Below are positions 4,850 to 57,851 of a stretch of 64,000 nucleotides of DNA, in pieces. Source of the stretch: Verrucomicrobiota bacterium (GTDB taxonomy: Bacteria; Verrucomicrobiota; Verrucomicrobiia; Limisphaerales; J093); contig JAOSKK010000023.1 in the NCBI GenBank assembly GCA_027493615.1, forward strand, positions 558,001 through 622,000, read 5' to 3'. A program made the translations under genes and the position numbers. The notes below the pieces were generated by a model. That model worked only from the letters and a program-made list of their open reading frames with translations. It had not been told where the DNA came from and searched no databases. The stretch's first letter is position 1. Each line of letters begins with the position of its first letter.

Positions 4850-4974
4850 GCAGGGGGAGTGTTGGCCGGACCGGGCCCGCTGGGCAAGCGGGAAGGGGCC
4901 ATGTGGGAAGCGGCCTGTTCCCTTCGGACCTGCTCGGCAGCCATGAGCCTGAAAGCGCCGGTAAACCGGACGTA

Positions 4975-5029
4975 CTCCAGACACTTCGCGTGGAACGGAC
5001 GGGTTCCGCCCATCGCGAAGCGTCTGGAG
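4975..5029. repeat. long inverted repeat (hairpin)
   Basis: CTCCAGACACTTCGCG at 4975-4990 pairs with CGCGAAGCGTCTGGAG at 5014-5029, 15 of 16 positions. The inner part (GGAAC/GTTCC) can extend the stem. It lies about 125 bases upstream of the chosen sucA start. There is no U-run, so a simple terminator is unlikely. A dispersed repeat element or a folded leader of the suc genes is possible. Confidence 0.6.
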
Positions 5030-5055
5030 TGCGGAGGTTCACCACCGCTTTTCGT
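5020..5055 (+). repeat. dispersed repeat, GCGTYTGGAGTGCG family, copy 1
   Basis: Begins GCGTCTGGAGTGCGGAGG and ends CCACCGCTTTTCGT. A second copy on the other strand at 17330-17367 begins GCGTTTGGAGTGCGCCGA and ends CGGCGCTTTTCGT. The copies differ by a few substitutions and small gaps. Its first ten bases form part of the right arm of the hairpin above. Confidence 0.5.
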
Positions 5056-5197
5056 GCACGCTTCATGCGAAGAGGGAACGTTCGGATTTTCCGTAGCCGA
5101 ACCGCTCGGCCGAGGGGAGTCTGCGCCCGGCCAGCGGACATTCTACCGCAGAATCTGACAACTTGAGTATACAGAATCGCATATTATCCTGCGTTTC

Positions 5198-14096: not shown

Positions 14097-17000
14097 ATGG
14101 CGGTGTGGACCTGCTGCTGCCGAAGGGGTGCGGCGCGACTCCGGGGTGCTGCGGTTCTCGCAGCTCTTGGCATGTGTCTGTCTGCTCGTGCCGCGACGTC
14201 GGTGGTGGCCTGGGGACGCAACTCGTATGGCCAGACCGATGTTCCTGGGAGGTTGACCAACGTGACGGCGATCGCCGCGGGCGGTCTGCATTCCCTGGCG
14301 TTGAAGGCTGACGGGACGGTCGTGGGATGGGGGACCGGGGCTGGGGACAGGACCAGCCTCCTCCGCGCCTGACGAACGCCATCGCGATCGCCGTGTCGGC
14401 CGGTGGCTGGGACAGCGGAGGGGAGCACGGCCTGGCGCTGCTCGGAGACGGAGTCCCCACCGCACTCCGGGCTCCGGTCAGGCGGCTCGCGTTCACCGGC
14501 CAGGAAGTCGGGTTGAACGCCGGGATCGTAGCCGCACCGCCGTCGACCTATCAGTGGCGCCTCAACGGAACGGACCGGCCAGACGCGACGAACGCGTTCT
14601 TCGTGCTGGCCGACGCGCGGCCGGCGGACTCGGGGGTCTACGAGGTCGCCGTCACGAACCCGTTGGGTGCGATCGCGGTGACCCATACCGTCCTCCACGT
14701 CTGGGACCAGCCGCCCATCCTGACCAAGCAGCCCGCCGGCCAGACGACTTACCCCGGAGCGACGATCTCGCTGAGCGTGAAGGCCGCCTTCTCGGTTGGT
14801 CTCGTGGTGTCGCTCGGGTACCGGGAGTTCGACCAGACGAACGTCCCCCCGGTCTGACGAACATCGTCGCGCTGGCCGCCGGCGACTGGCACAGCCTGGC
14901 GTTGCGCGCGGACGGCACGGTTGTGGCCTGGGGATCGGACACTTTTGGGCAGAGCAGCCTGCCGACGGGCCTTTCAGACGTGGTGGCGATCGCCGCGGGG
15001 GAGTGCATAGCCTCGCGCTGAGACGTGACGGGACCGTGGTGGCTTGGGGGGCCGTGGACGACCCGCGCTATGTCCCCGTGGACTATGGACAGACCGACGT
15101 GCCGGATGACCTCGTGGATGTGGTGGCCATTGCCGCCGGAGGCGTGCATGGGCTCGCGCTGAAGTCGGATGGACGGGTGGTCTGGCTGGGTGCGGGCGGT
15201 CTGGAGCAGAACGCCGCTCCTGCCGGATGGTCGAATGTCGTCGCCATCGCCGCCGGCGCGGGACACAGCCTGGCGCTCCGGCAGGACGGTTCGATCGCGG
15301 CGTGGGGTTCCACGAGGGCGCCGGACACTCTCTCGAACGTCGTCGCCATCGCCGCGGGCATCGGCAGCATGGCGTTGCTGGGAGATGGCAGCGTGGTGCG
15401 CTGGGAATACGGACCGCCGACAGCATTGCCCGGATGGACGAATGTCGTGGCGGTGGCCGCGGGGGAGTATCGGTACCTCGCTTTGCGTGCGGACGGCACC
15501 CTGCTCTCCGAGAACTATCGGCTGCCGTCTGCGGCGCTGAGCCAGGTCGTCGGCATTGCCGGAGGCCGCTATCACGCGCTCGTGCTGCTGGGGGATGGCC
15601 GCCCGACGCCGGCGGGGCCGGAGCTGAGTCGCACGGCTCTGTCTGGAAACCGGGTCGTGCTCAATGCGCGGGTGGTTGGCACACCGCCGCTTCGTTACGC
15701 GTGGTTTCGAGACGGGATCGAACTTCCCGGCGAGACCCATGCGTTCCTCGAGCTTGGCGCGGCTGAACTCGCGGACTCCGGCACTTACACGGTCGTGGTC
15801 TCCAATCCACTCGGGACCGTCACCTTCACGAACACCACGCTCCGGGTCGCGGACGGCGCCCCGTGCTGGTTCAACAGCCCGGGAGCGCCAGCGGGTATCC
15901 AGGTGGGAACGTCGTTTTCGAAGCGCGCGCCGAAGGCTCGCAGCCACTGGTGTTTCAATGGCTCTTCAACGGGGTTGGGATTCCCGGCGCCACCAACGCC
16001 GAACTGCGCGTCGGGCCCTCGACTTCGCGGACGCCGGACACTACCAGGTTCTGGCAGCGAATGCGTTTGGGACGACGCAGAGCGCGGAGGCGGAGTTGCG
16101 GCTCGATCCCCTCGTGGTGTGGGGAGCCTGGCAGGATCCGTATCCGCACTGTGGCGGTCAGGCAGCGCATCCTCCGCCCGGCTTGACGGAGGTGGTTGCC
16201 GCGGCAGGCGGCTATTATCACACGCTCGCCCTGCGGGCGGACGGCACCGTGGGGGCCGCGGGCTACGAGGAAGGCTGTGGTGCGAGCGGCGCGACGCTGG
16301 TTCCCGCCGGCCTGTCGAACGTCGTGGCAGTCGCCGCGGGGGGGTACCACAGCCTCGCGCTGAAAGCCGATGGCACGCTGGCTGCCTGGGGAAACCTGGG
16401 CTGGAATCAAATGCACCAGCCGCCCGCGCTCTCCAACGTGGTCGCCATCGCGGTCAAGGACGAGCTGGATGTCGCTCTGCTCGCGGATGGCCGGGTGGTG
16501 AGTTGGGGGTCGCCCGCGTACACCAATGTCCCGGTCGACCTGGTCGGCACGATCGCCATCGCCGCCAGTGAAAAAGGGGGCGGCGTTGACGGGCGAGGGA
16601 CGGCTCGCCTTGTGGGGACGTGCGGCGCTGTCGGTCGGGGAGCAGATTGCCGACCTCACCAACGTGGTGGCCTTCGCCCTGGGCAGGGCGCACCTGCTCG
16701 CCCTGGATTCCACCGGTCAGGTGAGGGCTCGCGGAAGGAACGATGGCGGGCAACTGGACGTTCCTTCGGAACTTACGAACGCCGTCCAGATCGCGGTCGC
16801 GCAGGATGTTTGCCTCGCGCTCAAGCCAGACGGCACGGTGGTCCGGTGGGGCGGGACGGGGGTCCTCAACCCGCTGCCGTCACTCCCGGTGGGACTGACC
16901 AACGTCGAGGCGATCGCCACGGGAGGCTACCAGTTCCTGGCGATCGTCGGGCGGAGTCCCCCGCCGCCGCCGGGCGGATCTCCCCTCCGGATCGTGAGCA

Positions 17001-22674: not shown

Positions 22675-22863
22675 GGCCCCCTCTACTCCCCAGCCGGTCC
22701 GGGGCTGGAACGGCGGCGGCAGTCGCCGTCGTGAGGAGGCATTCACGGATCGGGGGGCGAGGATGCCGCGCGACGAGGCGCGGGGAGGCGCGAGTTCCCC
22801 GGGCACGGTCCCGGAAAGCGTCCTGTTCCTCTTGGACCCGCCGGGGGGCCATGAACCACGGAG

Positions 22864-22983
22864 GGTGCAGGCGGGGCGCCCGCACCACAGGTTCAGGGAG
22901 CGCCTCCCTCAGCCCAATCCCCGATGTTCGTAATCCGCGGAGAATCCAAGACGAAGAGTTTCTCCACCGATTACGAACATCGG
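22864..22983 (+). repeat. 120-base structured repeat, copy 1
   Basis: Aligns without gaps over 120 bases to 57732-57851, about 104 identical positions by hand count. The left part is a hairpin (GGTGCAGGC...GCCCGCACC). The right part is a long stem with arms CCGATGTTCGTAATC and GATTACGAACATCGG. It is in the intergenic region before the alternative complex III operon. Confidence 0.75.
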
Positions 22984-23393
22984 AAATGGGGGAAGGGACG
23001 TGGTCATCTTGGATCGGCTCAGGGCCATGAACGCTCCGCGCCGGGTCGGGGGGAACCGGCCTGCAGGTGATCGGGGACCTGGCCTCCCGGTTGTCGGCCG
23101 GGTGCCCTCCCCGGGCGGTTCATGGGCTGGCAGGCGGGGCCGCCCGGCGGCGCAACCGATCTGACTAATCTTATACATTAACAATCCCGAAAACTGCAGC
23201 CCGCCCGTCCTGCGGACTTGTCGGACCGCCCCCGGCTCCCTAAAAGAGCTTCGCTTCTTTTGTTGTGAGAGGCGCAAATTCGGTGGGGTCCTTCTCACGC
23301 CGTGGATCCGACCCAACGGCCACCGGGGGCGCGGCGGGTCCGGGTTGTCGTTGACGCCGGCGCGGGGGCAGGGCTCACTTTCGGGGTTTTTGC

Positions 23394-57731: not shown

Positions 57732-57851
57732 GGTGCAGGCTGGAAGCCCGCACCACCGGCTCAGGGAGCGCCTCCTTGAGCCCAATCCCCGATGTTCGTA
57801 ATCGGCGGAGAATCCAGGACGGGGAATCCCGCCACCGATTGCGAACATCGG
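57732..57851 (+). repeat. 120-base structured repeat, copy 2
   Basis: Gapless match to 22864-22983. The arms are CCGATGTTCGTAATCGG and CCGATTGCGAACATCGG. The left hairpin GGTGCAGGC-N4-GCCCGCACC keeps its pairing while the loop differs. It lies between rng (downstream end) and the start of the actin-like gene. Confidence 0.75.

What the first reader, a model, noticed from the sequence alone, without database searches (positions are those of the whole stretch)
22864..22983. Gapless 120-base repeat with conserved stems, copies 35 kb apart
The two copies have the same length and about 87 percent identity by hand count, and the inverted arms around GATGTTCGTAAT are almost unchanged while loop bases vary. 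This suggests selection on structure. Both lie outside genes, before an operon (actA) or near a gene start (actin-like gene).
Basis: seen in the sequence. Interest (0 to 1): 0.5.

Follow-up and report, generated by a model that had tools for sequence, protein, structure and literature searches.

The report
IS110-ended miniature elements carrying a hairpin
The two 120-base repeats are old copies of a mobile DNA element, present in more than sixty copies in this genome, that has no genes of its own and appears to borrow the recombinase (and probably the guide RNA) of an IS110-type jumping gene whose ends it shares.

Summary
The repeat is real: 126 gapless bases, 87% identical, 34,868 bases apart, with hairpins that fold better than all 200 shuffles. 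It is not a two-copy regulatory structure but the interior of a dispersed element: 66 two-armed copies in 0.64 Mb held from this genome and 67 in 0.55 Mb of a sister genome, stretches mostly chosen around hits; 11 of 14 family genomes show no match. The full unit has a left tip (GAAGCGTCCTGTTCC...GCCATGAACC) and right tip (GGTTCATGG) shared with two IS110-family insertion sequences of this genome. One insertion has a near-clean empty site in the sister genome. Best reading: a composite, non-autonomous IS110 element enclosing a REP-like hairpin, moved in trans by IS110 recombinases; movement is inferred, not shown. Arms vary about threefold less than loops. Evidence for selection on pairing is mixed: family-wide changes are mostly one-sided, but orthologous copies show 7 two-sided changes where 1.4 are expected, 3 of them compensatory. 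No IS110-ended MITE appeared in the listings of searches.

The parts
22815..23125 (+). Full composite element, copy 1 (311 bp): left tip, H1 hairpin, H2 hairpin, second left tip, module X, right tip
   Evidence: Consensus edges, junction pattern GG|(G/A)(A/G)AG ... GGTTCATGG|, sequence
22815..22857 (+). Left tip (AAAGCGTCCTGTTCC...GCCATGAACC), homologous to the ISa/ISb left end
22864..22886 (+). H1 hairpin GGTGCAGGC..GCCCGCACC
   Evidence: Fold; family alignment
22921..22983 (+). H2 core hairpin: 22-nt arms 22921-22942 and 22962-22983, 19-nt loop
22992..23032 (+). Second left tip (type B), to the right of H2
   Evidence: Left-tip census
23033..23125 (+). Module X, ending in the right tip GGTTCATGG (23117-23125)
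   Evidence: module census
57732..57851 (+). Copy 2: H1 + H2 without recognisable tips (truncated or decayed)
   Evidence: ortholog comparison
57789..57851 (+). H2 core hairpin of copy 2
4907..5068 (+). Third element of the same kind in the window, with module Z instead of H1/H2 (left tip 4907-4949, right tip GCTTCATGC 5060-5068)
   Evidence: Z-element lengths 160, 161 and 180 bp

Best explanation
The 120-base repeat is the interior of a non-autonomous (MITE-like) element with the ends of an IS110-type insertion sequence. The basic unit is [GAAGCGTCCTGTTCC...CCATGAACC]-[hairpin module]-[GGTTCATGG]. In the copies described here a short H1 unit and a second unit (for example module X) flank a separate REP-like hairpin, H2, giving a composite of roughly 280-310 bp; an internal deletion of it probably gave a 200-bp form (type A), common in this genome. 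Inferred mechanism: an IS110-family recombinase of the ISa/ISb kind, guided by the RNA from its own 5' noncoding region, joins the tips into a circle (junction GGTTCATGG|GAAGCGTCC) and inserts it after GG in sites like TCA(T/A)GG|GAAG without target duplication. Right tips resemble that target, so elements pile up head to tail. Shown: shared tips, copy number, one near-clean empty site, the junction pattern, the tandem ISa/ISb array, the conserved noncoding region. Inferred: mobilisation in trans, RNA guidance, origin of the composite.
For: Copies: 66 two-armed copies in 640 kb of G000 and 67 in 552 kb of G001; 38 exact hairpins in G000; 134 forward and 126 reverse arm hits with up to 2 mismatches, 0 in the reversed control. 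Tips: 156 left-tip sites in 1.19 Mb, 0 in a reversed control; of 92 testable left tips 61 have a right tip within 400 bp downstream, against 19 with a scrambled tip and 0 on the opposite strand upstream; lengths cluster at 83-84, 108-114, 198-203 and 277-287 bp. Same tips on ISa (11 full copies, 99.3-100%) and ISb (3 copies); the ISa and ISb proteins match PF01548 and PF02371. A 202-bp stretch with the element at G000 C12:399434 is absent in G001, GGGAAG|TTCC. Junctions: 11 of 11 ISa left flanks end in GG, 10 of 11 right flanks start GAAG, and by eye 10 of 11 left flanks are right tips of a related element. Of 22 type A copies 16 start GAAG, and all 16 have GG before it (the search pattern itself asked for a GAAG-like start, not for the GG). 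Type A is in 21 of 66 G000 and 1 of 67 G001 copies, matching ISa/ISb: many in G000, not seen at G001's one PF01548 locus. The 5' noncoding region is conserved in most of 17 aligned relatives from several phyla (of 79 fetched), and one of its loops matches the own left junction better than shuffled pairs: 96 against 58.0 +/- 4.7, 0 of 2000 (14 of 35 IS parsed). Use of IS ends with the RNA supplied in trans is known experimentally: PMC11187229 and PMC11208160 (passages).
Against: No transposition or RNA was measured. The best empty site has a further difference of about 42 bases just to its left; the one at C23:781.8k has unrelated sequence in G001 and the one at C12:384.7k also holds the IS array. 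H2 also occurs without tips, alone and in tandem arrays, so H2 has its own, unexplained way of spreading. 45 of 133 copies fit neither type A nor type B, window copy 2 lacks tips, and 31 of 92 left tips have no right tip within 400 bp, while a scrambled right tip is found for 19 of 92. Three type A copies had no parsable left tip, one starts CACG and two have near variants. The element matches ISa/ISb only at the tips. The sampled stretches were mostly chosen around hits.
Confidence: 0.75

Rival explanations
1. The tips are a host palindrome (REP-like target) and ISa/ISb merely insert beside it; the 120-base repeat is a REP-like target repeat, not an IS110 derivative.
For: IS110/IS1111 elements are known to target REP sequences (PMC1525189 abstract; QMITE2 is an IS1111 target, PMC5896051 passages). 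By eye 10 of 11 ISa left flanks are right tips of these repeats. H2 exists without tips.
Against: Both tips lie inside the 1595-bp unit that is 99.3-100% identical among 11 ISa copies. Several IS110 relatives from other phyla carry a similar left tip upstream of the noncoding region. Tip-flanked elements have clustered lengths.
Confidence: 0.12
2. H2, or the whole repeat, is a REPIN: two inverted REP arms moved by a RAYT (Y1 transposase).
For: Two conserved inverted arms with a variable spacer, tandem arrays and single copies resemble REPINs (PMC3116915 passages). G000 and G001 have 14 and 15 Y1_Tnp hits.
Against: None of the 29 Y1_Tnp loci (match plus about 1.5 kb each side) has an H2 arm within 3 mismatches; two loci have weak hits to the tip/H1 half only. 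The near-clean indel has IS110-type ends.
Confidence: 0.1
3. A structured regulatory RNA or DNA element maintained by selection at gene starts.
For: Strong folds; arms more conserved than loops; in 11 orthologous pairs arms diverge 7.6%, loops 13.4% and the 65 bases left of the hairpin 11.9%, with 7 two-sided changes against 1.4 expected, 3 of them compensatory; both window copies intergenic and shared with G001.
Against: No Rfam match in the window; family-wide only 7 double Watson-Crick changes among 273 arm deviations; loop inversions; no match in G002 or G003 of the same genus; more than sixty copies with IS-like tips.
Confidence: 0.05

Closest known systems
IS110-family insertion sequences with bridge RNA / seekRNA (IS621, ISEc21; PMC11208160, PMC11187229, passages seen)
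   Same: ISa/ISb have the DEDD_Tnp_IS110 and Transposase_20 domains, a long noncoding region upstream of the gene, site-specific insertion, and guide-like loops that follow their junctions.
   Different: The repeat itself has no recombinase gene and no recognisable guide RNA. ISa/ISb also carry subterminal inverted repeats, which the cited paper calls absent, or short and imperfect, in IS110 types.
QMITE2 of Coxiella burnetii (PMC5896051, abstract and passages)
   Same: A MITE of 150-190 bp that holds a REP hairpin and is a hot spot for an IS1111-type element.
   Different: QMITE2 is the target and has its own direct repeats; here the repeats carry the IS110-type ends themselves.
REPINs (PMC3116915, passages)
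   Same: H2: paired conserved arms, variable spacer, tandem arrays, high copy number.
   Different: No RAYT neighbour found; many H2 copies lie inside an IS110-ended composite.

Membership tests
IS110 family (ISa, ISb) | DEDD_Tnp_IS110 and Transposase_20 domains | tested here: met
   PF01548 and PF02371 above cut-off in both proteins
IS110 family (ISa, ISb) | Long noncoding region upstream of the gene (IS110 type) | tested here: met
   236 and 246 nt, left tip included, before the ORF start; conserved in most of 17 aligned relatives (L239 does not align, L225 and L227 are cut short)
IS110 family (ISa, ISb) | Bridge/seek RNA expressed and bound | not testable with these tools
   Only the loop-junction match, 0 of 2000 shuffles, 14 of 35 IS parsed, several of them close relatives of one another, ISa/ISb not among them
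IS1111 subgroup | Subterminal inverted repeats with 7 bp (left) and 3 bp (right) extensions, noncoding region downstream | tested here: not met
   Inverted repeats present (35-bp match in ISb), but the left extension is about 34 bp and the long noncoding region is upstream
MITE of an IS110 element | Both ends shared with an autonomous element in the same genome | tested here: met
   Left tip 1-39 of ISb matches the element beside ISa at 94.9%; right tip GGTTCATGG
MITE of an IS110 element | Insertion polymorphism with a precise empty site | tested here: met
   One near-clean case, G000 C12:399434, 202 bp
MITE of an IS110 element | Mobilised in trans by the partner recombinase | not testable with these tools
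   Needs an assay
REPIN (H2) | Inverted conserved arms with a variable spacer | tested here: met
REPIN (H2) | REP sequence beside a RAYT gene | tested here: not met
   0 of 29 Y1_Tnp loci have an arm within 3 mismatches
REP superfamilies | GTAG or CGTC tag at the foot of the palindrome | not tested
   None noticed by eye in the H2 consensus
Known structured RNA | Match to an Rfam model | tested here: not met
   0 matches in the window at gathering thresholds

The most novel reading that the evidence does not exclude
A natural, high-copy class of bridge-RNA-dependent miniature elements: tip-only IS110 derivatives with interchangeable hairpin modules (H1, X, Y, Z) that rely on recombinase and guide RNA in trans. 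Their right tips reproduce the preferred target (TCATGG|GAAG), so the system accretes on itself and captures neighbouring hairpins as passengers.
Probability: 0.5. Interest if true: 0.6.

Novelty: new variant of a known kind. Interest (0 to 1): 0.42.

Why it matters
IS110 systems are of wide interest as RNA-guided recombinases, but the descriptions I saw concern autonomous elements. A genome pair full of tip-only derivatives would suggest that these recombinases act in trans in nature, and would give a natural record of many insertion sites from which target rules can be read. It also explains a striking hairpin repeat without invoking a new regulatory RNA.

Tried and rejected
RAYT/IS200 origin of the whole element: 29 Y1_Tnp loci held no H2 arm. 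Known RNA: no Rfam match. Covariation as proof of structure: mixed. A first strict typing of copies missed a type A copy in G001 and left 94 of 133 untyped; it was replaced by the lenient count, so type A is not exclusive to G000. The first module census used loose patterns and filed the ISa and ISb tips under other modules; one search repeats it with stricter patterns. Treating each 120-base copy as one unit was dropped because H1 and H2 also occur apart. A literature search for verrucomicrobial or REPIN-like repeats listed nothing specific (listing only).

Rows dropped: of 24 flank-matched pairs 20 were aligned; 19 went into the arm/loop count, 1 was missing and 7 were excluded for inverted, unequal or different loops, leaving 11. 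In one search, 21 of 35 IS failed the motif search, ISa and ISb among them. On re-checking, the odds of the regulatory rival were raised from 0.03 to 0.05 because of the two-sided changes in orthologs.

Full report
Observation. The two copies are as described: 126 gapless bases, 87% identity, 34,868 bases apart. Copy 1 folds with z = -5.6 as DNA, copy 2 with z = -8.2 as RNA. There are three hairpins: H1 (GGTGCAGGC..GCCCGCACC), a short middle one, and H2, with 22-nt arms around GATGTTCGTAATC. Between the two copies 3 of 44 arm bases and 6 of 19 loop bases differ.

Copy number and range. The element is dispersed. A DNA search of the own genome listed 76 matches (self-complementary arm matches included), with 348 first-look candidates of which 40 were scored. 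The exact two-armed pattern occurs 38 times. Single arms with up to 2 mismatches give 134 forward and 126 reverse hits against 0 in the reversed control. In the 1.19 Mb that I held, mostly stretches chosen around hits, 133 two-armed copies were found, 66 in G000 and 67 in G001. Of 14 genomes of the family, several incomplete, G000 and G001 carry it, one more (G012) has a weak hit (E = 3e-4), and 11 have none.

Anatomy. Aligning 31 copies with flanks showed conservation beyond the 120 bases. The left tip is GAAGCGTCCTGTTCC...GGACCTGCTCAG..GCCATGAACC. The right side is of two main kinds. Type A ends in GACGGGTCGGGCGGTTCATGG. Type B runs into a second left tip and then a module (such as X, Y or Z). 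With a lenient count, type A is 21 of 66 in G000 and 1 of 67 in G001, type B 31 and 35, neither 14 and 31. At one orthologous locus G000 has type A where G001 has a longer form with module X, an 88-bp difference, which suggests that type A is a deletion form. There are 156 left-tip sites, none in the reversed control. With stricter patterns and the IS tips counted first they are followed by H1 (89), Y (24), X (11), Z (9), ISa (6), ISb (2) or other sequence (15); X and Y are short patterns with two substitutions allowed and may include chance matches. Of 92 left tips with room to test, 61 have a right tip within 400 bp, against 19 for a scrambled tip and 0 on the reverse strand upstream; lengths cluster at 83-84, 108-114, 198-203 and 277-287 bp. 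The scrambled control is not small, so single short elements should be read with care.

Link to IS110. The region inserted in G000 relative to G001 at C12:384.7-391.4k contains a type A element followed by a head-to-tail array of two related insertion sequences, ISa and ISb. Their proteins match DEDD_Tnp_IS110 and Transposase_20. Eleven full ISa copies are 99.3-100% identical, and both tips lie inside that unit. In all eleven the left flank ends in GG and in ten of eleven the right flank starts with GAAG; by eye ten of eleven left flanks are right tips of a related element, L150 being the exception. G001 has a single PF01548 hit, whose locus showed neither such tips nor a BLAST match to ISa/ISb; G002 has 15 hits, which were not examined for tips; G003 has none. 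Of 79 loci with relatives of the ISa transposase, 17 were aligned: most share a similar left tip and a conserved noncoding stretch before the gene, L239 does not, L225 and L227 are cut short. One loop of that stretch matches the own left junction far better than shuffled partners (96 against 58.0 +/- 4.7, maximum 86, 0 of 2000), for the 14 of 35 sequences that could be parsed; several of these are close relatives of one another, so they are not independent. ISa and ISb differ in this loop (GGAGAG / GGGAAG) as their left starts do (AGAG / GAAG), and in a second loop in the opposite sense (read by eye). This is what the bridge RNA / seekRNA model leads one to expect (PMC11208160, PMC11187229; passages seen).

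Empty sites. At G000 C12:399434 a 202-bp stretch with one type A element is missing in G001, which reads GGGAAG|TTCC; a further difference of about 42 bases lies just to the left. At C12:384.7k the same left flank is seen, but the IS array is included. At C23:781.8k G001 lacks the element but has other sequence. The two window copies are present at the orthologous loci of G001, so they are older than the split. At copy 1 the element differs strongly (70% locally while the flanks are near 95%), which points to conversion or replacement.

Is structure under selection? In 84 forward-loop copies the arms vary less than the loops (0.033 and 0.029 against 0.097 in G000; 0.027 and 0.043 against 0.139 in G001). 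Among 132 copies there are 273 arm deviations; only 7 double Watson-Crick changes occur (14 of the 273), and pair 18 is usually a C-A mismatch (82 of 132). Two-sided changes of any kind are more frequent than expected, 31 against 15.2, but 17 of the 31 are T-G states at pair 18, and 15 of these 17 copies have an inverted loop. In 11 orthologous pairs arms differ at 37 of 484 sites and loops at 28 of 209 (p = 0.02); the 65 bases left of H2 differ at 84 of 707. Two-sided changes are 7 against 1.4 expected: 3 compensatory, 2 that lose pairing, 2 unpaired before and after; 23 pairs changed on one side. The wider flanks diverge by 4-13%, but much of them is coding. I call selection on pairing undecided, and not needed to explain the repeat.

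H2. H2 also occurs without tips and in tandem arrays; the arrays I printed are in G001, the single copies in G000. It resembles a REPIN (PMC3116915, passages), but no arm lies within the 29 Y1_Tnp loci. REP-like palindromes are known IS110/IS1111 targets (PMC1525189 abstract; PMC5896051 passages). My reading is that tip-ended units inserted on both sides of an H2 copy and the composite then moved as one; this step is inference.

Novelty. Searches for IS110 or IS1111 with MITE, non-autonomous or bridge RNA found 548, 710, 254 and 34 papers with at least two terms, of which 20, 20, 15 and 12 were listed; no title or abstract start described an IS110-ended MITE. In three listed papers that hold both words, the MITEs are tied to other families in the passages shown: IS1182 (PMC11578231), the parent IS ISCca4, listed under IS982 (PMC9769881), ISC1733 and ISC1058 (PMC3718332). 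The text of a 2024 review of prokaryotic MITEs holds the word IS110 zero times and IS1111 twice (PMC10969869). The library is limited to open-licence papers. I rate it a new variant of a known kind.

Noticed in passing
window 4907-5068: A third tip-flanked element of the same kind, with a different hairpin module (Z).
   Followed up: partly
L122 1-6420 (G000 C12:385001-391420): Head-to-tail a-b-a-b array of two related IS110 elements, each beginning at the right tip of the one before.
   Followed up: yes
L221-L241, within about 330 nt upstream of the transposase genes: Noncoding region conserved across phyla whose loop matches the own left junction; a likely bridge RNA family, with no Rfam match on the ISa/ISb array.
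   Followed up: partly
L109, L093, L190, L188 (G001 C6:36.7k, C9:89.2k, C20:14.9k, C26:42.0k): Tandem arrays of three to four H2 hairpins at about 100-base spacing; their mode of spread is unexplained.
   Followed up: partly
G000 C23:580680-580787 against G001 C9:70799-71294: About 400 bp extra in G001 just upstream of copy 1.
   Followed up: no
window 14243-16511: Seven copies of a 93-nt direct repeat (60-71% identity to the reference copy), perhaps a repeated protein domain.
   Followed up: no
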